Positions 8,701-39,372 of a stretch of DNA of 64,000 nucleotides are shown piece after piece (within the stretch, counting starts at the first letter, position 1; each line of letters opens with the position of its first letter). The DNA comes from Eublepharis macularius (lineage: Eukaryota; Chordata; Lepidosauria; Squamata; Eublepharidae). Both the position numbers and the translations under genes were made by a program. The notes under the pieces are model-generated. The model saw only the letters and a list, made by a program, of their open reading frames with translations, did no database searches and had not been told where the DNA came from. The DNA lies in assembly GCF_028583425.1 (NCBI RefSeq), contig NC_072806.1, positions 29,930,001-29,994,000 on the forward strand, read 5' to 3'.

Positions 8701-11700
8701 ACTTGGTAGAGGAGAAGAAGTGGGGACCAAAGCTGTGTTTCCCATCTAATTCCACTGGCCAAAAAGAAGAAAACAGTCAATAGGGTACTTGGCATTGTTG
8801 CCCTCAGAGATTCTAAAGTATCTGTTTGCTGGTGAGCGAGAAGATAGCAGCCTGAATTCGACAGCCCCCTCTCGTGGGGATTTGGCTGTTTACGGTCTCC
8901 TGGCCTTGCTCGAGTCTTGCTCTTCTGCTGAGGAATTGCTGTAGGAGCTGTGGGTTGGAAGACTGCCGAGCTGGCCAAAAACACGCCAAGGGGAATTTGG
9001 AATCGGTGGCTGGAATGTTGTATTACTGGCATTTCCCGCTCCCCCCCCCCCAGTTTGTTAGGTCCCAAGCTGGGAAGAATATGAGCAGAAAAGGAGGAGG
9101 CCTCAGTTCAGCCTGAAAGGAAAATCTATTTGGCTTCCTACTTTGAGAAGAGGGCACAGCCAGTTCCCACATCTGTTCCCCTGGACAGCACTCAAACCCT
9201 GTGCAGCTTGGGAGGAGGGGGGGGGGCAGATTACAGCACAGCTGTCTCCAAACATGGCAGTATTTTGATTCTGGTTTCCAAGGCAGTGGCTGGCTGTGGT
9301 CCAGCTCGGCCAGCGGTCATTTCCAGGAAAGGTGTGCTGGAGGGAATTGGATGGCTTCCAGAGTTTAACCTGGGCAAAGAAAGTGGGGGGACCTGTGAGA
9401 TGGCGACCAGATCCAGGCCAGGGTGTGTGCGTATGTGTTGCATCAGGTCTGTGCAGCTTCTGATATGGAAACAGCAGTGCTTGAACAGAGCCAAGGAGGG
9501 GAGAGACAGGAGGTTGGACGACCAGCGATTCTGTCCTTCTGCTCTCTTTCTCTTCCAAATGGGTTATCCTGGAAAGGCCTTGCCACCGTGCCAAAGTGAA
9601 GGAGGTCTGTGAAACTAACCCTTTTTGCTTTGTCCACATGTCTTCATTGCCCAGGGTGGCTGAGAAGGAGCCTGTCAACAAAATGTCGCTGCACAATCTG
9701 GCCACTGTGTTTGGCCCAACGTTGTTGAGACCTTCCGAGGTGGAAAGCAAGGGGCATCTCAGTTTGGCCTCAGACATCTGGTCCCATGACGTCATGGCAC
9801 AGGTACAGGAAGGGCTTGGGAGGGGGCTGTGGCAAAGTTGGAGGGAGAAGCCAGTGCCCCCTGCTGGGCCACCTACTGACCCCAGAACGCCCTTCTGCTG
9901 TAAGCAAGGGTTCTCTTGAAGGCCAGTTCACATGATACAAAAGTCCTGGTGGCCACTTGGAAGACTTGGTAGCTGACGCACGTTGGGAGTTCTCTGCCTC
10001 CTAGATGCATGTGTGCTTGATTCTGATTGCAGTCACAAAGCACGGGGAGGCTGAGCTTTAGCCTTTCTCCCTTGCCCCTTTTTTATGTTCCGAAATGGCC
10101 CGGGAGCTGCTATTTGCTCTAATTCAAAAATTATGTGTAGCCATGCAAGTTACGTAGTTTTTGCAATGGAGCAAATAATGTCTCCCAGGTGGCCATTTCG
10201 GGATATGAATATGGCATGTGGGGAGGTCCGAAGCTCTTTCTCCCCTGAGAGCCATGCTGCAGTTAGCCTGCGTGTGTCGTGTGTGCGTGCGCGCGCACAC
10301 ACAGAACTGCGATTGCACATCTGACTTAAAGTCTTCATGGCAGCTTGGAAGAATTTGTACTGAGTGACTTGGCCCTCTGGTAACATTGCACTTGTCAAAG
10401 AGTGAAGGCATAGCAAAGCCCAGAGATGCTGTTCCCCACCCCCTTCCCAAGGATTCCCCCCCCCCAGTGGAAGGAAAAATTGAAGAGATCTCTTATGAAA
10501 CATTCTCTGACAAAATATCTCAAAGCAGTGTTTTAAAATAATCTTTCTATAACCGATTTATGCAACTGTGAAGCTCTGCTGTCCAAGACTCAAGGGTGAA
10601 AATGTTTGCCACTCGGTCCTTAGCTTAGCAGGCTGGTAGGATACAATCTGTAAAATCATAGAATCATAGGCTTGGAAGGCACCTCCAGGGTCATCTAGTC
10701 CAACTCTCTGCACAATACAGGAAATGCATCCCCCCCCCCGCTCAATGCTCCATGCCCAGAAGATGGCAAAACACCATCAGGATCCCTAGCCAAACTGGTT
10801 TGATTTTCAGTTGTTTTATTTTTTCCCAACTGGCAAAAAAACTTTAGGTACCTTAAATTTGTCTTTTATTTTACTTAATTTATACCCTGCCTTTCTTCCC
10901 AATGGGGACCCAAAGTAGCTTGTATCAGTCTCCTCGCCTCCATTTTATCCTCTCAACAACCCTGTGAGGTAGCTTAGACTGACAGCATGAGACCTCGCCC
11001 AAGGTCACCCAGCAAGCTTCCATTGCAAGGCTGGGACCTGAACCTGTCACTCTCAGATCCTAGTGCAACACTCTTAACTACCACATGGGCTTTCTTAAAG
11101 ATTCAACATCTCCATTTCTGATGCTGGGTAGATAATGGGTATTTATGATTTCAATGAAACAAGGCAGTTATAGTTTTAAATTTCATCAGTATACCCAAAA
11201 GGACAATGTGTACACGCCAAGTTGTATAACGTAACACTGTCTACGTTTTCAAAGTAATACAGTGAGTTTAGGCTTTATTAAGAGAGGAAGCATTAACTTG
11301 TATTTCAGGTTTTCTCAATTCCTAAGTATTCCGCCCCCCCACAAAGCAGGGGATAAAAGGTTAGACCTAAAACATAAAGGGAATGAAAAGTTTACACCTC
11401 CTAGAACTAAAATGTAAAGGGAAATTATCCCTGCAAATCAACCCACGTTTTCTTCTGTATTTGATACATTGGTGTGTCTCTCTCTCTAAAAACTGTCAAC
11501 ACTGGCTCTGCTGTCAGCCCTAGGTGGTTCTTTCTTTTAATTTTAAGGTAGGTTTAGCCCTTTAATGCATTACTGCTTTGATCTACTGAAAAATATTCAA
11601 AACGCTCCAGTGCGTGAGGAGGGGAGGAGTTTTGGAGTCAACTCAGTCCTCTCGGTAGTGTGTGCAGTCAATGTCCTTTGTAGATCCGTAAAGCTGTTTT

Positions 11701-16898: not shown

Positions 16899-17094
16899 AA
16901 GTGGCCTCATACTGTATCAGACCATCAGGTCATCAAGATCAGCATTGTCTACTCAGACTGGTAGCAGCTCTCCAGGGTCTTAGGCAGAGGTATTTCACAT
17001 CACCTATTACCTGAGCTTTTTCAACTGGAGATGCCAGGGATTGAACCTGAGACCTGCATGCCAAGCCGATGCTCTACCACTGAGCCACAGCCCC
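16899..17094 (-). mobile_element. tRNA-Ala-derived SINE
   Basis: The reverse complement reads GGGCTGTGGCTCAGTGGTAG, AGCATCGGCTTGGCATGCAG, then GGTTCAATCCCTGGCATCTC, very close to tRNA-Ala. A body with GGTGATGTGAAATACCTC and CAGTCTGAGTAGACAATGC follows. The tRNA part is embedded in the SINE and is not a functional tRNA gene. Confidence 0.8.
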
Positions 17095-21700: not shown

Positions 21701-22746
21701 TTGTGGGGATAATAATAACATTGTAAACTGCTCTGAGTGGGTGTTAAGTTGTTCTGAAGGGCAATATATAAATTGAATGTTGTTGTTATTTTGGGAGTGG
21801 AGCTTGGGGAGGAGGGTTGAGAGAGAGGCTGGAGCTCAGCAGGTTATAATCCCACAGAGTCCATTGTCAAAGGCAACAATTTTCTCCAGGGAACTGATCT
21901 CTGTCACCTGGAGATCAGTTGTAATTCTAGGAGTTATCCAGCCACCACCTGGAGATTTGCAAGTCTAGGGTGCTCAAAAGGAATGTGATGCCACAGAGTC
22001 CACCTTCTGCCATTTCCTGCAGGGGAACTAATCCCTGAAATCTGGAGATCAGCTGTAATTCCAGATTTCCAGGACCCACTTGGAGATTGGCACCGCAAAG
22101 CCCTCTTCAAAGGAAGAAAGCCAGTGAAGTATCTGCAAGGGATGCTCTTCCGCCCCACCTTAAAAGACCCCCTCCTAGGGTTGCCAGCCTCCAGGTGGTA
22201 ACTGGAGATCTGGAAGTACAAGGGAACTCCAGGCCACAAAGATCATTTTCCCTGGAGAAAATGGCCCCTTTGAAGGGTGGACTTGGTACCATTGTATCTC
22301 ATGAGCTCCTTCCTCTCCCCAAACCCCACCCTCTCCAGGCTCCACCCCCAAAATCTCCAGGAATTTCCCAATCTGGAGTTGGCAACCCTATCTCCTCCCC
22401 ACCCCTTCCCCATGGGTGCTTTCCAAAGGAGCCTGGTCTGTCCTCTCACTACGAACAGCTCCTGGCCCCAGCAGCCCCTTCCCCACCCACCTCCGACGCA
22501 GGCCAGCACCGCCTTGAAGCCGCAGCTCTCCATAACTCGCTCGACCATCTTCTGCTCGTCGCTCTTAGCCGGGGCCGGGAAGCCGCCGAGGGAGGCCGGG
22601 TCGAAGGCTCGAGCCTGCCTCGGCCCGCGCTTGTCGCCCACCAAGTGCTCCAGCAGGAGGCTGTACTGTAACGTCGGGACTCTCTCGGCAGCATCGCGGG
22701 CCGTTTCAGGCCTAGTCCGGTCTGAATCGGAGGCCTCCGCCGCCAT
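18704..22746 (-). CDS. TIMM22: TIMM22, complete gene (4 coding exons)
   Basis: Exons on the minus strand are 22746-22491, 20718-20522, 19745-19673 and 18780-18704. They splice in frame to 603 bases (200 residues and TAG), close to the roughly 194 residues of human TIMM22. The protein is the channel-forming core of the TIM22 translocase, which inserts multispanning carrier proteins into the mitochondrial inner membrane. Visible family features: N-terminal LQYSLLLEHLVGDKR, a first membrane segment around MESCGFKAVLACVGG and FVLGGAFG, then the loop FTAGIDTNVGFDPKDPYRTP, the segment YAKNFAIVGAMFSCTEC, the GCITGGAIGFRAG segment and a last helix ending IDYYLR. The start is the ATG at 22746 (G at -3 and +4); no in-frame ATG lies upstream in the open frame. 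It faces ABR tail to tail, as in human. Confidence 0.97.
19673..19745 (-). CDS. TIMM22: TIMM22 exon 3
   Basis: A 73-base exon follows TTCCACAG and ends at GTAAGT. It encodes YRGKSDWKNSVMSGCITGG then AIGFR, the third membrane segment. One base of a Gly-Ala junction codon is left for exon 4. Confidence 0.96.
20522..20718 (-). CDS. TIMM22: TIMM22 exon 2
   Basis: It follows GTTAG and encodes GFVLGGAFGIFTAGIDTNV, then DPKDPYRTPTAREVLKDMG and YAKNFAIVGAMFSCTECLV, ending at GTGAGT. It holds the most conserved TIM22 loop and the second membrane segment with the CTEC cysteines. Confidence 0.97.
20940..21060. other. AT-rich patch in TIMM22 intron 1
   Basis: A run of TAATA/TTATA-type sequence between 20940 and 21050 is clearly richer in A and T than its surroundings. 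No function is evident. Confidence 0.5.
21611..21970. mobile_element. Composite GGGTTGCCA-type MITE with inserted SINE tail
   Basis: It starts AGGGTTGCCAACTCCAGG and ends in the CCACCTGGAGATTTGCAA edge. Between them, about 21690-21790 matches the 3' part of a tRNA-derived SINE (TAAACTGCTCTGAGTGGGTG, ending in GTTGTT). It is followed by another partial unit to about 22095. The TIMM22 first intron thus holds nested copies. Confidence 0.6.
22176..22392 (-). mobile_element. GGGTTGCCA-type MITE, inverted copy
   Basis: It begins AGGGTTGCCAGCCTCCAGG and ends TCTGGAGTTGGCAACCCTA, opposite in orientation to 21611. It lies in TIMM22 intron 1 about 100 bases from exon 1. Confidence 0.7.
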
Positions 22747-22830
22747 TACTGGGGCTTTTCTCCCACTTTCTGTCACAACACGGGAACTGCAAGTACCATA
22801 AGGCCTTTCGGGGCAGCGGCCGTCTCTCCC
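22480..22830. promoter_or_regulatory. TIMM22: CpG-rich TIMM22 promoter and first exon
   Basis: This stretch is rich in CG dinucleotides compared with the AT-richer, CpG-poor sequence around it, and it covers the TIMM22 start codon and upstream leader. No TATA box is seen, as is usual for housekeeping CpG promoters. Transcription would run to the left. Confidence 0.7.
22491..22746 (-). CDS. TIMM22: TIMM22 exon 1
   Basis: It starts MAAEASDSDRTRPETARD and ends in ACVGG with a GTGGGT donor, leaving one base of a Gly codon. The upstream open frame has only a GTG codon (22774-22776), so the ATG at 22746 is the start. Confidence 0.95.
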
Positions 22831-27694: not shown

Positions 27695-27968
27695 CAGGGC
27701 TTTTTTTTCTGGGAAAAGAGGTGGTGGAACTCAGTGGGTTGCTCTCGGAGAAAATGATCACATGGCTGGTGGCCCTGCCCCCTGATCTCCAGACAGAGGG
27801 GAGTTCAGATTGCCCTCCGCGCTGCTCCAGTGCCACTCCAGCGGCGCGGAGGGCAATCTAAACTCCCCTCTGTCTGGAGAGCAGGGGGCGGGTCCACCAG
27901 CCATGTGACCATTTTCAAGAGGTTCCAGAACTCCGTTCCACCGCGTTCCGTCTGGAAAAAAAGCCCTG
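27695..27968. mobile_element. hAT-type fold-back MITE, copy 1
   Basis: It has terminal CAGGGCTTTTTTTT and AAAAAAAGCCCTG and a large internal palindrome (arms around ATCTCCAGACAGAGGGGAG). It is flanked by a perfect 8-bp target duplication GCCAGCTC (27687-27694, 27969-27976), as expected for hAT transposition. It has no coding capacity. Confidence 0.9.
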
Positions 27969-32945: not shown

Positions 32946-33251
32946 TGATCACGTGCAGGGCTAGTGCCAGCATGGGGTCATCAGGTCCATTATACTGCTT
33001 GAGTTATGTCTTCTTTCAAAAATTAGGTTTTTTTAAATATTGTGTGAGTCTAGTAGCCTCCATTTAGAACTAAGAACTTGTTTTTAGAAGAGAAAAAATG
33101 TTTGACGGCACATGTGCATGCACGCACATGCGCACACACACGGTGTTTCCCTTCTCCTGTCCACCCAAAAAAAAAAAAGTGCCAAATTTCACCCATTTAT
33201 GCCCACCCAGGATTTTCTTGGCTCAGATTAGAATGCCAAGATCATGATAAT

Positions 33252-34372
33252 TGTCCGGGGTCAGCAGCCCAGCCCCCGGACTTGCTGACAGGCAGCGGCA
33301 GGGGGCAGCCGGGAGACAGCAGTTCAACCGCTCTGTCTGGCAAACAGAGCCAGAACCTGCCTGCTCCAGGGGGAAGGGGAGAAAGGCCAAAGCCTCAGAA
33401 GGCTGGAGGGAGCAGGGAGAAGCCAGCTAGTCCCACCCCCCAGGGGGAGGAGAGGGGGCTAAGCAGGCTAGAGGAAAAGGGCCAAGGCAGGGGGAATAGG
33501 GACACAGCAATAGCCCAAACAAAGCCCTTACCTTCCAAGGAGGAGAAGCAGCCACTACAGCCCAGAGCCACACCCTGGCTAGACAACAGCAGCCTGGCTC
33601 AGGAGGTGCTAGGAGCCAAGCCCCTCCAGGTGGAGCTGCCACAGGCATTCTGGGGGAGGAGATGGGTAGCCCCGTCCGGCATCAACCAACAGGCAGCACT
33701 GAAGCTGGCCAGGGCAGCTCCTCGCGAGCAAGGCCGGCCAGGCTCAGCAGCACAGAAGCCAGCTGGGGCAGCTCCTCGTGAGCAAGGCCAGGCAGGCTCA
33801 GCAGCACAGAAGCCGGCTGGGGCAGCTCCTCGTGAGCAAGGCCAGGCAGGCTCAGCAGCACCGAAGCCGGCTGGGGCAGCTCCTCATGAGCAAGGCCAAG
33901 GAGACCTCAGCCGGGGATGGCTTGCATTCAATCCCACCCTGCCAGCAAGGCAAGGAAGCCAAGAAGGGATTAGTGGTAGGAGGGAAACACCTGAGGGAAG
34001 GCACAGCTGGGCCAAGTCAGGAGATGGCACAAGCCTAGAAGGAGGGCGGGGCGGGGAAAGGAAGCCCTATATAAGGTGGCTAGGAAGAGCTCTGAGGTGG
34101 TGGGTGTGAGTGAGGAGTGATCATGTGGAGTGAGAGCAGTAGGATGCAAGGGTGGAGGCTTGGGGGAGAGTTCTGGAAGGAGGTGAAGGAGGATGCAGGG
34201 GGTAAGCAGGCCAGGTTGAGCAGGCCAGCGAGTGGACTGAGAGGGAGTCTGGGTGAGGTATACCGCCCCTCCTTCCACAGAGCAGGGTCCTGCAGAATCC
34301 CTGGCCCCCCTGTGACGTCAGGAGCAGACCGCCCAGTGCCACGCCCAGCGGCAGTCGCGGCAAGCCCTGACA
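33252..34372 (+). repeat. 5' LTR of the Gmr1-like element (1121 bp)
   Basis: It begins TGTCCGGGGTCAGCAGCC and ends CGGCAAGCCCTGACA. It contains a GC box near 34044, a TATATAA at 34068-34074 (likely promoter), a TGACGTCA palindrome at 34313-34320, and about 3.4 copies of a 54-bp tandem repeat from about 33713. The same length and apparently the same sequence recur at 37846-38966. Confidence 0.93.
33713..33895 (+). repeat. 54-bp tandem repeat in 5' LTR
   Basis: About 3.4 units, each 54 bases (GGCAGCTCCTCGTGAGCAAG at the start), encode an 18-residue repeat GAAPREQGQAGSAAQKPA. An identical array lies in the 3' LTR at about 38307-38489. The unit length is a multiple of three, so the frame stays open. 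Confidence 0.85.
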
Positions 34373-34425
34373 AGTTGGTGGCCCGTACGGGGAAGGTCGT
34401 TCCAACGCAGGCGCCAGGTGAGGGG

Positions 34426-37400
34426 ATGCACTCCAACGCCATGGCAGAGCTCAGACCATGGCTAGAGGCACACCTGGACGAGATGTGGAGGAAGCTGGAG
34501 GCAACCTTCCGAGCAGCTCAGGTGGAGCTAGCGCAGGCAGTGGAGCACCAGATACAAGCCTGCACCCCCGCAGCCACCCCCCCAGTGGTATGCGCGTTTG
34601 CGTGGGAAATTAACCCACCAGCCGGCAAGGTGGTGCAGGGTCTGTGCACCACCGTGAGAATAGGACGGCAGACCCTACAAGCCCTATTGGACTCAGGGAG
34701 TGCAGTGTCAGCAATTCGTTCCCAACTCATCCCAGCTGACACCCCAGTGCACCGCTGGGTCCCGGTGACAGACGTGATGGGCCGCACCCAGCCGTACCCT
34801 ATGGTCTGGATCACAGTGGAATACCTGGGAGCGCTCCGCCGCCTGGAAGTTGCCAAGGTAGCCCACTTACCGCTCCCTATGCTGCTGGGGAGAGATGCAC
34901 CGGGGTTCTCAAGGCTACTTAGGGAGGCAACCGAGGGACTGGCAAACCCACAGGTCGCCCCAGCGCTGCAAGTGGAGGAGGCCCCCGACCCGGACGAGGG
35001 TCCCTCTACCAGATCAGGGGCAGGCCCGCGGGCCAAGGACCCGGTGGGACCCCCGGCCGACCGCCCCTTCTGCGAGGCCCAAGGGGCAGATGAGTCCTTG
35101 CAGCGCTTGCGGGAGACAGCAGCTCGTGAGGAGGACCGAGTGCAGGATGAGCGGAGGTCCCAACGGCTTCCCCGCATTGAGAAGCAAGGAGGGGTGTGGG
35201 TCCGCCTAGCCCGTGCCCCAAACGGCCAGGGAGAGATCCGCCAGCTACTGGTGCCGGCAGCTTACCGGGCAGAAGTCCTCCGCACGGCCCATGAGCACGC
35301 TTGGGCCGGGCATCTGGGGCACCACAAGACCCTGAAGAAGATCCTCGAGCAGTTCTTCTGGCCCTCCGTGAACGCGGACGTGAAGGCCCACTGCCGCTCG
35401 TGCCCCACCTGTCAGCGGGTGGCAGCCCGGCGCCCACCAAAGGCTCCCCTCTCCCCGCTGCCCGTCATGGAGACGCCCTTCCAACGCATCGCGATGGACT
35501 TTATCGGCCCACTGCCACGCACGCCCCGGGGCCACCGCTTTGCCCTGGTGATCGTGGACTATGCTACACGATTCCCTGAGGTCATCCCGCTTAAGACGAT
35601 GCAGACCCCGGGGATGATACGAGCCCTGTCCAAGCTTTTTGCCATGGTGGGACTGCCTGATGAAATCTTGACAGACCGGGGGGGGCCGTTCCGGGCCAAA
35701 GCCATGCGTCAACTCTGCCAGAATTTGGGGATCCGGCAGATATTCACCTCGGCGTACCACCCTCAGACCGATGGTTTGGCAGAGCGTCTGAACCAGACCG
35801 TCAAGGAAGCCTTGAGGAAGATGACACAGGACAAGCCTCGACAGTGGGACCTATACATCGACCCCCTCATGTTCGCCCTTAGGGAGACCCCGCAGGCGTC
35901 CACCGGCTTTAGCCCCTTCGAACTGCTGTACGGGCGCAAGCCGCGGGGGATGCTCTCTCGGCTGGCGGAACGGTGGGGTCCCCGCACCAGCAGCCCTGCT
36001 CCCCCCATACCGGAGTACATGAGCCAGCTCCGCGAGCGGGTGCAGCAGTCCCAGGCCGAGGCCAACCGCCAGCTGACCCACGCCCAGACAAAGCAGAAGT
36101 CTGCCTACGACCGGGGTGCAAGGATGAGGACCTTCCAAGTTGGAGAGAAGGTCCTGGTACACCACTCGGTGTTCCCACGGGAGGAGGGGAACCCATGGAG
36201 GGGCCCTTACCAAATTCGGAGGGTGCTGGGCCCCACCACCTATGAGCTGCAGTGCGGGCCAGGCCGACGCCGATGCAGAACCCTGCACGTGAACCTGCTC
36301 AAGCGGTGGCATGAGCGGCCAGAGGACGGGTGCGTCTTGGCTGAAGACCCCTTAGACCTCCCAGACAGCGAGCTGCCATGGACCGCTGACGCCCCAGAGT
36401 TCGAGGAGCCGAAGGTGGATCCACAGCTCAACCCTGCACAGAAGGCCCAGCTACAGGCCCTGTGGAGGCAAGTGCCCGGGGTCTTTTCAAGACGCCCTGG
36501 GGTCACGAACCTGGTGCACCATGCCATCCCCACCCAGCCGGGGCAATCTGCACGGGCAACCTGGCGGCCCATCCCCCGGAAGCAGTGGGAGGCGGTGGAT
36601 CGGGAGACAGAGGAAATGCTGCGCCTGGGGGTGATTGAACCGTCCCGAAGTGAATGGCGCAGCCCCATCGTATTGGTGCCGAAGCCAGACGGTTCGACTA
36701 GATTCTGCATCGACTACCGCGAGCTGAACAAGGTGGCCATGTTCGACGCGTACCCCATGCCCCGGGCGGATGTTCTGGTGGGGCAGTTGGGGCCCGCACG
36801 GTACCTATCAGCCCTCGACCTAACAAAAGGGTACTGGCAGGTGCCAGTTCGCCCCGAGGACAAGGAAAAGACAGCCTTTGCCACCCCCCGGGGCCTCTTC
36901 CAGTTCCGCCGCATGCCCTTCGGCCTCCATGGGGCAGCGGCTACCTTTCAGCGACTGGTGGACCAAGTCCTGGGGGACTGTCGGGACTTCGCAATGGCTT
37001 ACATTGATGACATCGTCATCTTCAGTCCCGACTGGCCCACCCACCTGCAACATCTGGAGAGAGTCCTCACCGCGCTCCAGAAGGCGGGGCTGAAGGCCAA
37101 CCCCAAGAAGAGCCACTTGGGGTTCCAAGAACTCAAGTACCTGGGGTTCGTCATAGGGGGTGGGCAGGTCCGCCCTCCCCCTGAGAAGGTGGCCTCCATC
37201 GGGGATGTCCCCCAGCCTCAGACCAAGCGTCAGCTCAGGCGGTTCCTGGGGCTCCTCGGCTACTATGGGCGCTTCATTCCCCATTTTGCATCCTGCGCAG
37301 CCCCCCTGACAGACTGCCTGAGGAAGGGCAGCTCTAGTCGCCTCAGCTGGACACCAGAGCGGACGGCCGCCTTCCAAGACTTACGCACCGCCCTGTCAGA

Positions 37401-38703
37401 CACCACGAAGCTCTGGAACCCCGACTTTGAGAGGCCCTTCATCCTGGCAACTGACGCGTCGGCCTCGGGCCTCGGGGCGATCTTGATGCAGGAGCGAGAT
37501 GGGGAGAGGGTGCCCATCTTGTTCTTAAGCCGCAAGCTCCAGCCAGCGGAGCAGAAGTATGCCACCCTCGAGAGAGAAGCCCTCGCCATCAAGTGGGCCG
37601 TGGGGGCTTTAAGATATTACCTGGCCAATAACCCCTTTACGCTGGTGACGGATCATGCACCGCTCCAGTGGATGCACCGCATGAAGGAGCACAACCCCCG
37701 CGTCCTGAGGTGGTACCTGTCCCTGCTGCCGTACCGATTTGCCATCACCTACCGTCGGGGGGCCAACCACATGGATGCAGACTTCATGTCACGGCTCTTC
37801 GAGCCAGACCCCCCCGAGCCGACATCCAGGCTAAGAGGGGGTGTGTGTCCGGGGTCAGCAGCCCAGCCCCCGGACTTGCTGACAGGCAGCGGCAGGGGGC
37901 AGCCGGGAGACAGCAGTTCAACCGCTCTGTCTGGCAAACAGAGCCAGAACCTGCCTGCTCCAGGGGGAAGGGGAGAAAGGCCAAAGCCTCAGAAGGCTGG
38001 AGGGAGCAGGGAGAAGCCAGCTAGTCCCACCCCCCAGGGGGAGGAGAGGGGGCTAAGCAGGCTAGAGGAAAAGGGCCAAGGCAGGGGGAATAGGGACACA
38101 GCAATAGCCCAAACAAAGCCCTTACCTTCCAAGGAGGAGAAGCAGCCACTACAGCCCAGAGCCACACCCTGGCTAGACAACAGCAGCCTGGCTCAGGAGG
38201 TGCTAGGAGCCAAGCCCCTCCAGGTGGAGCTGCCACAGGCATTCTGGGGGAGGAGATGGGTAGCCCCGTCCGGCATCAACCAACAGGCAGCACTGAAGCT
38301 GGCCAGGGCAGCTCCTCGCGAGCAAGGCCGGCCAGGCTCAGCAGCACAGAAGCCAGCTGGGGCAGCTCCTCGTGAGCAAGGCCAGGCAGGCTCAGCAGCA
38401 CAGAAGCCGGCTGGGGCAGCTCCTCGTGAGCAAGGCCAGGCAGGCTCAGCAGCACCGAAGCCGGCTGGGGCAGCTCCTCATGAGCAAGGCCAAGGAGACC
38501 TCAGCCGGGGATGGCTTGCATTCAATCCCACCCTGCCAGCAAGGCAAGGAAGCCAAGAAGGGATTAGTGGTAGGAGGGAAACACCTGAGGGAAGGCACAG
38601 CTGGGCCAAGTCAGGAGATGGCACAAGCCTAGAAGGAGGGCGGGGCGGGGAAAGGAAGCCCTATATAAGGTGGCTAGGAAGAGCTCTGAGGTGGTGGGTG
38701 TGA
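34426..38703 (+). CDS. pol: Pol polyprotein of the Gmr1-like element (PR-INT-RT-RH)
   Basis: A single long frame holds the aspartic protease (LLDSGSAVSAI, DSG at 34690-34698). Next comes integrase, with an HHCC zinc knuckle near 35290-35420, a catalytic triad with D at 35497, D at 35674 and E at 35782, and a WRGPYQIRRVLGP module near 36200. After that comes reverse transcriptase (FCIDYRELNK, SALDLTKGYWQVPV, FQFRRMPFGLHGA, YIDD at 37000-37011), then RNase H (ATDASASGLGAIL with D at 37453, and LVTDHAPLQW). The frame runs on into the 3' LTR and ends there. A short coiled-coil-like stretch precedes the protease. No Gag part is recognised. Start choice is uncertain. Confidence 0.85.
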   Translation: MHSNAMAELRPWLEAHLDEMWRKLEATFRAAQVELAQAVEHQIQACTPAATPPVVCAFAWEINPPAGKVVQGLCTTVRIGRQTLQALLDSGSAVSAIRSQLIPADTPVHRWVPVTDVMGRTQPYPMVWITVEYLGALRRLEVAKVAHLPLPMLLGRDAPGFSRLLREATEGLANPQVAPALQVEEAPDPDEGPSTRSGAGPRAKDPVGPPADRPFCEAQGADESLQRLRETAAREEDRVQDERRSQRLPRIEKQGGVWVRLARAPNGQGEIRQLLVPAAYRAEVLRTAHEHAWAGHLGHHKTLKKILEQFFWPSVNADVKAHCRSCPTCQRVAARRPPKAPLSPLPVMETPFQRIAMDFIGPLPRTPRGHRFALVIVDYATRFPEVIPLKTMQTPGMIRALSKLFAMVGLPDEILTDRGGPFRAKAMRQLCQNLGIRQIFTSAYHPQTDGLAERLNQTVKEALRKMTQDKPRQWDLYIDPLMFALRETPQASTGFSPFELLYGRKPRGMLSRLAERWGPRTSSPAPPIPEYMSQLRERVQQSQAEANRQLTHAQTKQKSAYDRGARMRTFQVGEKVLVHHSVFPREEGNPWRGPYQIRRVLGPTTYELQCGPGRRRCRTLHVNLLKRWHERPEDGCVLAEDPLDLPDSELPWTADAPEFEEPKVDPQLNPAQKAQLQALWRQVPGVFSRRPGVTNLVHHAIPTQPGQSARATWRPIPRKQWEAVDRETEEMLRLGVIEPSRSEWRSPIVLVPKPDGSTRFCIDYRELNKVAMFDAYPMPRADVLVGQLGPARYLSALDLTKGYWQVPVRPEDKEKTAFATPRGLFQFRRMPFGLHGAAATFQRLVDQVLGDCRDFAMAYIDDIVIFSPDWPTHLQHLERVLTALQKAGLKANPKKSHLGFQELKYLGFVIGGGQVRPPPEKVASIGDVPQPQTKRQLRRFLGLLGYYGRFIPHFASCAAPLTDCLRKGSSSRLSWTPERTAAFQDLRTALSDTTKLWNPDFERPFILATDASASGLGAILMQERDGERVPILFLSRKLQPAEQKYATLEREALAIKWAVGALRYYLANNPFTLVTDHAPLQWMHRMKEHNPRVLRWYLSLLPYRFAITYRRGANHMDADFMSRLFEPDPPEPTSRLRGGVCPGSAAQPPDLLTGSGRGQPGDSSSTALSGKQSQNLPAPGGRGERPKPQKAGGSREKPASPTPQGEERGLSRLEEKGQGRGNRDTAIAQTKPLPSKEEKQPLQPRATPWLDNSSLAQEVLGAKPLQVELPQAFWGRRWVAPSGINQQAALKLARAAPREQGRPGSAAQKPAGAAPREQGQAGSAAQKPAGAAPREQGQAGSAAPKPAGAAPHEQGQGDLSRGWLAFNPTLPARQGSQEGISGRRETPEGRHSWAKSGDGTSLEGGRGGERKPYIRWLGRALRWWV

Positions 38704-38966
38704 GTGAGGAGTGATCATGTGGAGTGAGAGCAGTAGGATGCAAGGGTGGAGGCTTGGGGGAGAGTTCTGGAAGGAGGTGAAGGAGGATGCAGGGGGTAAG
38801 CAGGCCAGGTTGAGCAGGCCAGCGAGTGGACTGAGAGGGAGTCTGGGTGAGGTATACCGCCCCTCCTTCCACAGAGCAGGGTCCTGCAGAATCCCTGGCC
38901 CCCCTGTGACGTCAGGAGCAGACCGCCCAGTGCCACGCCCAGCGGCAGTCGCGGCAAGCCCTGACA
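37846..38966 (+). repeat. 3' LTR of the Gmr1-like element (1121 bp)
   Basis: This is a direct repeat of 33252-34372, offset by 4594 bases, with no difference seen by eye and identical 54-bp tandem repeats. It is followed by the ATAAT target duplication. Confidence 0.93.
38307..38489 (+). repeat. 54-bp tandem repeat in 3' LTR
   Basis: This is the partner of the array at 33713-33895, displaced by the LTR offset of 4594 bases. Confidence 0.85.
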
Positions 38967-38999
38967 ATAATCTCTATCTTCCTTAAGTGGTCTGGTGCG

Positions 39000-39194: not shown

Positions 39195-39372
39195 AAATAG
39201 TAGAGTCCAGTAGCACCTTTAAGACTAACTAACTTATTTGTAGCACAAGTTTTCGAGAACCACAGCTCTCTTCGTCAGATGCATCTGACAAAGAGAACTG
39301 TGGTTCACGAAAGCTTATGCTACAAAGAAGTTGGTTAGTCTTAAAGGTGCGACTGGACTCTTTGCTATTTGG
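39195..39372. mobile_element. Penelope-like terminal repeat, inverted pair
   Basis: AGAGTCCAGTAGCACCTTTA and its inverse TTAAAGGTGCGACTGGACTC flank an inverted pair joined at CAGATGCATCTGAC. The arms include CGAGAACCACAGCTCTCTTC and its inverse. The arrangement fits pseudo-LTRs of Penelope-like elements, which may be inverted. Confidence 0.65.

What the first reader, a model, noticed from the sequence alone, without database searches (positions are those of the whole stretch)
33252..38966. Young Gmr1-like retrotransposon with gypsy-type enzymes in copia-like order
Protease, integrase, reverse transcriptase and RNase H occur in that order. The RT (YIDD, FRRMPFGLHGA) and integrase GPY module are of Ty3/gypsy type. 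Placing integrase before RT is typical of Ty1/copia and, among gypsy elements, of the Gmr1-like group. The two 1121-bp LTRs look identical and the 5-bp target duplication is perfect, so this lineage was active very recently in this reptile. No capsid part is recognised, which raises the question of how it moved.
Basis: partly seen in the sequence, partly recalled or inferred. Interest (0 to 1): 0.75.

Follow-up and report, generated by a model that had tools for sequence, protein, structure and literature searches.

The report
Gag-less Gmr1-like retrotransposon, recent insertion
A recently inserted jumping element, probably in a lizard, of a known gypsy group with its integrase in an unusual place has kept all its enzymes but lost the shell protein it needs to move, so it probably relied on a relative's.

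Summary
LTRs 33252-34372 and 37846-38966 are identical (0 of 1121 differ) and flanked by ATAAT. One open frame between them encodes protease, integrase, reverse transcriptase and RNase H in that order, each over its Pfam cut-off. The order is no assembly join: 178 of 178 relatives with both enzymes have integrase first, and a leopard-gecko protein (P0001) matches the RT-RNase H stretch at 69%. Gmr1-like membership is well supported, though the type element Gmr1 was in neither tree. Gag is what is missing: P0001 has SCAN and CCHC domains and about 367 residues before the protease match; this copy has about 85, modelled as one helix without a capsid fold, and 111 relatives' Gag regions match the element only at chance level. 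It is built like the gag-less elements Tos17 and BARE2, which move in others' particles. Whether Gag was lost before, during or after this insertion is open: the genome search did not complete (13 tries). The Pol frame also runs 285 codons into the 3' LTR, longer than shuffled sequence gives but with no sign of selection.

The parts
33247..33251 (.). left copy of the 5-bp target duplication, ATAAT
33252..34372 (+). 5' LTR (1121 bp), identical to the 3' LTR; holds four in-frame 54-bp tandem units at 33693-33908
34068..34074 (+). TATA box TATATAA in the 5' LTR
34376..34393 (+). primer-binding site, complementary over 18 of 18 bases to tRNA-Ile(AAT) with CCA
   Evidence: tRNA sequence recalled, read as tRNA-Ile aat by ARAGORN
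34426..34683 (+). all that lies in the frame before the protease motif: start codons at 34426 and 34441 and about 85 codons; modelled as one 38-residue helix plus a low-confidence rest; no capsid, SCAN or CCHC knuckle. Homology to relatives resumes near 34546, at the end of their CCHC knuckle
34684..34935 (+). aspartic protease (DSG at 34684-34719)
35251..36360 (+). integrase: H2C2 zinc domain 35287-35412, D,D,E motifs at 35488, 35662 and 35755, GPY module 36199-36249
36571..37332 (+). reverse transcriptase, YIDD at 36994-37026
37333..37830 (+). RNase H (motifs at 37450, 37570, 37642, 37774)
37833..37841 (+). polypurine tract AAGAGGGGG, read in the Pol frame as part of LRGGV
37846..38703 (+). 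285-codon continuation of the Pol frame into the U3 part of the 3' LTR, stop TGA at 38701-38703
37846..38966 (+). 3' LTR (1121 bp)
38967..38971 (.). right copy of the target duplication, ATAAT

Best explanation
A young Ty3/gypsy LTR retrotransposon of the Gmr1-like (integrase-first) group that has lost the capsid and nucleocapsid parts of Gag by an in-frame internal deletion and kept everything else: LTRs, tRNA-Ile primer site, polypurine tract and one open frame for protease, integrase, RT and RNase H. Shown: anatomy, domain order, identical LTRs, target duplication, absence of Gag. Inferred: such an RNA cannot build its own particle, so it was packaged, copied and integrated in particles made from the Gag of a complete relative, while still supplying or co-supplying Pol. 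That is the way of life proposed for the gag-less elements Tos17 and BARE2.
For: Identical LTRs and ATAAT duplication. Open protease-to-RNase H frame with all catalytic motifs. Closest relative P0001 has a complete Gag with SCAN and CCHC and 367 residues before its protease match against about 85 here; median 307 over 164 relatives. 111 Gag regions of relatives against the whole window: best E 0.021 outside the element, best inside it 0.51; Pol parts of the same 111 all hit the element. Model of the remnant is a single helix. Homology resumes at the end of the CCHC knuckle in the best local alignment to 2 of 4 relatives tried, P0001 and P0004, and the frame is kept. Precedents: Tos17, mobile without gag (PMC3977881, abstract and passages); BARE2, packaged without its own Gag (PMC3735527, passages); D-type cattle ERVK, trans-complemented (PMC10924933, passages).
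Against: Only one copy was seen. No Gag donor in the same genome was shown, and no second copy with the same break. The first 46 residues of the remnant show no significant likeness to the Gag starts of 105 relatives (1 of 105 with z above 3, median z -0.28), so that it is the old Gag start rests on position alone. An in-frame break is expected by chance once in three.
Confidence: 0.55

Rival explanations
1. A complete Gmr1-like element inserted or was being reverse transcribed normally, and this one copy lost its Gag by a template jump during that reverse transcription or by a genomic deletion afterwards. It is a dead-end copy of an ordinary autonomous family, not a trans-mobilised lineage.
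For: Single copy seen; identical LTRs leave little time but allow one deletion; internal deletions are common in LTR elements (general knowledge). The closest relative found is complete (P0001).
Against: The break keeps the frame, leaves the primer site and start codons, and rejoins close to the end of the CCHC knuckle, leaving the protease whole, the outcome expected if Pol expression mattered. This is weak: one event.
Confidence: 0.38
2. An integrase-first order or missing Gag created by the assembly: two elements joined, or a collapsed repeat.
For: Identical LTRs are also what a collapsed repeat gives; raw reads were not available.
Against: Order shared by 178 of 178 relatives with both enzymes; P0001 matches across integrase, RT and RNase H; the open frame crosses every junction.
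Confidence: 0.03
3. The element needs no Gag of its own or of others: the short N-terminal helix or the basic LTR-encoded tail of Pol has taken over part of Gag's work.
For: The Pol frame stays open 285 codons into the LTR, reached by 1 of 2000 shuffles in that frame and by 2 of 4000 with the tandem units collapsed; the tail is basic (41 K/R, 25 D/E, pI 10.6).
Against: No Pfam family in the tail; no relative in the protein search; the in-frame tandem units differ at synonymous and nonsynonymous sites alike (pN/pS 0.68-1.08 in 5 of 6 comparisons, the sixth has one synonymous difference); codon-position composition differs from Pol; the remnant model has no capsid fold.
Confidence: 0.04

Closest known systems
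Gmr1-like Ty3/gypsy elements (integrase upstream of RT)
   Same: Gypsy-type RT and integrase, integrase before RT, stated as the mark of the group in PMC8220671 and PMC3587641 (passages)
   Different: Gag, with SCAN in over half of frog Gmr elements (PMC4131045, passages) and in P0001, is missing here
P0001, uncharacterized protein LOC129333892 of Eublepharis macularius
   Same: Closest relative found: 45% protease, 62% integrase core, 50% integrase C-terminal part, 78% RT, 70% RNase H; Pol frame also runs on past RNase H
   Different: Complete Gag with SCAN and CCHC; too far for the same family
Tos17 of rice (Copia)
   Same: Active although it lacks gag; LTRs, primer site, polypurine tract and Pol kept; partner Gag proposed (PMC3977881)
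   Different: Copia superfamily, plant; movement observed there, only inferred here
BARE2 of barley (Copia)
   Same: Cannot express Gag; its RNA is packaged in particles (PMC3735527, passages)
   Different: Loss is a deletion that removes the start codon; here most of Gag is gone and start codons remain
D-type ERVK[2-1-LTR] of cattle
   Same: Vertebrate, non-autonomous, identical LTRs, trans-complementation by complete elements (PMC10924933, passages)
   Different: Retrovirus-derived and without any intact gene; here Pol is open throughout

Membership tests
Gmr1-like Ty3/gypsy | integrase upstream of RT | tested here: met
   relatives 178 of 178; criterion from PMC8220671 and PMC3587641
Gmr1-like Ty3/gypsy | Ty3/gypsy-type RT-RNase H and integrase | tested here: met
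   Best PDB match of both pieces is Ty3 (E 3e-81 and 6.2e-43)
Gmr1-like Ty3/gypsy | RT and integrase group with Gmr1 itself against conventional gypsy lineages | tested here: inconclusive
   Trees of 41 of 148 RT-RNase H pieces and 27 of 174 integrase pieces place the window with P0001, but neither holds the type element or an RT-first vertebrate gypsy; the cod protein P0016 dropped out of the integrase tree for a short match
Gmr1-like Ty3/gypsy | Gag with SCAN domain (frequent, not universal) | tested here: not met
   No Gag in this copy; present in P0001. In over 50% of frog Gmr elements by PMC4131045, so not a defining feature
gag-less, trans-mobilised LTR element (Tos17, BARE2 kind) | no Gag, Pol and cis sites kept | tested here: met
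gag-less, trans-mobilised LTR element (Tos17, BARE2 kind) | several copies sharing the same break | not tested
   genome search busy in 13 tries
gag-less, trans-mobilised LTR element (Tos17, BARE2 kind) | complete partner in the same genome; mobility in its particles | not testable with these tools
   needs the host genome and bench work

The most novel reading that the evidence does not exclude
In vertebrate Gmr1-like elements the Pol protein ends inside the LTR: the polypurine tract and LTR start are read as LRGGVC, and in a fish and amphibian branch the LTR-encoded tail carries a conserved motif of the type GxVxxGxYhP (20 of 69 tails, shuffles 0.03 on average). The gag-less window element would be an extreme case, with 285 LTR codons of basic tail that might help bind RNA in place of the lost nucleocapsid.
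Probability: 0.05. Interest if true: 0.6.

Novelty: new member of a known kind. Interest (0 to 1): 0.35.

Why it matters
If the break is shared by many copies, this would be a vertebrate, integrase-first counterpart of Tos17 and BARE2: an element that keeps all its enzymes yet lives on another's capsid. A recent insertion would make the donor findable in the same genome. If the break is private, it is an ordinary defective copy of a recently active family.

Tried and rejected
Assembly join of two elements: rejected by the shared order and the open frame. Hidden Gag in another frame, strand or place in the window: 111 Gag regions of relatives gave 28 matches at E up to 1, best 0.021 at 22726-22797, two inside the element (E 0.51 in the integrase part, 0.82 at the LTR end and leader), all of chance size. 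Many gag-less relatives: 16 of 164 have under 50 residues before the protease, but the four starting with MEVG or MMEVG that I looked at beside P0073 and P0093 begin just after a knuckle which those longer relatives carry, so they look like clipped gene models; the others of the 16 were not examined one by one. Mini-capsid in the remnant: not seen in a single-sequence model, mean pLDDT 69.5. LTR frame as a gene: no relatives, pN/pS near 1 in its repeats. Viral contigs: two scans, no relative. Genome contigs: one, L001, a contaminant. Ages from LTR identity: no rate taken from a call, so no figure is given.

Full report
What is there. Two LTRs of 1121 bp (33252-34372, 37846-38966) are identical, with the 5-bp duplication ATAAT outside them. 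The extra base shared to the right of both LTRs leaves the right border uncertain by one base; TG...CA ends favour 1121. Behind the 5' LTR lies a primer site complementary over 18 of 18 bases to tRNA-Ile(AAT) (tRNA typed from recall), before the 3' LTR a purine tract AAGAGGGGG. The repeat search of the window listed no third copy of the LTR.

Enzymes. Five pieces of the open frame were scanned apart: RVP; Integrase_H2C2, rve and Integrase_p58_C; RVT_1; RT_RNaseH; and nothing in the LTR-encoded tail. Order: protease, integrase, RT, RNase H. The motifs for catalysis are in place by eye (one search gives coordinates; which residues are catalytic is recalled knowledge). The closest solved proteins for both halves are Ty3.

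Relatives. One search (residues 1-500) gave 892 proteins at E up to 0.001 among 7982 scored candidates, search 2 (residues 641-1141) 1995 among 7981; each listed its best 120, together 211 proteins. The best in both is P0001 of the leopard gecko: 51% over 92% of the first stretch, 69% over 100% of the second. In 178 of the 211 both integrase and RT could be placed, and integrase came first in 178 of 178; the other 33 lacked one of the two matches. In the RT-RNase H tree (41 of 148 pieces) window, P0001 and P0121 form a clade at 100%; deeper nodes are weak (51-81% for several). In the integrase tree (27 of 174 pieces) the Ty3 root falls on the window's own branch, so as rooted the two are successive branches; read without the root, window plus P0001 are split from the rest at 94%. 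Neither tree holds Gmr1 itself or an RT-first vertebrate gypsy element.

Missing Gag. P0001 bears SCAN and CCHC domains and its protease match starts at residue 368; here the matching point is at about residue 86 of the frame from 34426. Over 164 relatives with protease and integrase the median is 307 residues before the protease; 94 of 164 show a CCHC knuckle there, the window none. Local alignment resumes at the end of the knuckle in P0001 and P0004, and later in P0003 and P0005. The remnant has no Pfam Gag, is modelled as one helix (4-41) with the rest at low confidence, and is not recognisably like the Gag starts of 105 relatives. A capsid elsewhere in the window was not found.

How it most likely works. 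Shown: an integrated copy with intact cis sites and enzymes but no capsid or nucleocapsid. Inferred: its RNA was copied in particles of a complete relative. Tos17, BARE2 and the cattle D-type ERVK show that elements without Gag can move or be packaged this way (passages). The rival, a private deletion in a copy of a normal family, is nearly as likely, because only one copy could be seen: the genome search was busy at 13 of 13 tries.

The frame and the LTR. The Pol frame has no stop before the 3' LTR and ends 285 codons inside it. In that frame 1 of 2000 dinucleotide shuffles reached 285 codons; 9 of 1000 had so long a frame in any forward frame. With three of four tandem units removed, 2 of 4000 and 17 of 2000. 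Upstream the same frame is open from 34114, with ATG codons at 34123 and 34144 inside the LTR; 148 of 4000 shuffles of the stretch 34123-34441 are open throughout, so that is not remarkable. Against a coding role: no relatives, pN/pS near 1 between the repeat units, a codon-position composition unlike Pol.

Relatives' tails. 69 of 211 proteins ended in a recognisable RNase H end; 26 of 69 then read LRGGVC or alike, and 20 of 69 carry a motif G.[VI][VLICR].G.Y against a mean of 0.03 in 200 shuffles (maximum 1). The pattern was chosen after seeing the tails, and some tails are close relatives, so the contrast with shuffles overstates it. Two amphioxus proteins stop one residue and L001 three residues after RNase H. 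The window's own tail lacks the motif (my reading of the sequence).

Known or new. The integrase-first order is the recognised mark of the Gmr1 group (PMC8220671, PMC3587641, PMC2774666; passages), and a Gmr1-like Gag is the stated source of the SCAN domain (PMC3424704, passages). The original Gmr1 papers are recalled, not read; Emerson and Thomas 2011 is not held. No paper of the library holds 'Gmr1', 'squamate' and 'LTR' together: the 230 papers with two of the three are ranked by number of terms and the first lacks Gmr1; a search for gag-less elements listed no Gmr1-like one by title or abstract start. So: a new member of a known group, with a known kind of defect that has not, in these searches, been described for that group.

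Noticed in passing
relatives P0008 to P0208 (protein ids): Pol tails behind LRGGVC carry a conserved motif GxVxxGxYhP in 20 of 69 tails; by analogy with the window this would be encoded in the LTR.
   Followed up: partly
37846-38703: 285-codon continuation of the Pol frame through the U3 part of the 3' LTR, longer than shuffles give, without sign of selection.
   Followed up: yes
33693-33908 and 38287-38502: Four 54-bp tandem units in each LTR, a multiple of three so that the frame is kept.
   Followed up: partly
L001 1-5441: Contig of a symbiont MAG (Candidatus Thiodubiliella, JAQRGB010000044.1) encodes a CCHC Gag and integrase-first gypsy Pol in one frame; probably host DNA in the assembly.
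   Followed up: partly
9485-9919: Frame with a RhoGAP piece (Pfam E 8e-8), probably an exon of a host gene.
   Followed up: partly
17026-17094, minus strand: Rfam tRNA match (44.8 bits) that ARAGORN does not call; perhaps a tRNA-derived repeat.
   Followed up: no
39202-39361 and 27750-27916: Nearly perfect inverted repeats of 80 and 83 bp arms with 0-1 bp between them.
   Followed up: no
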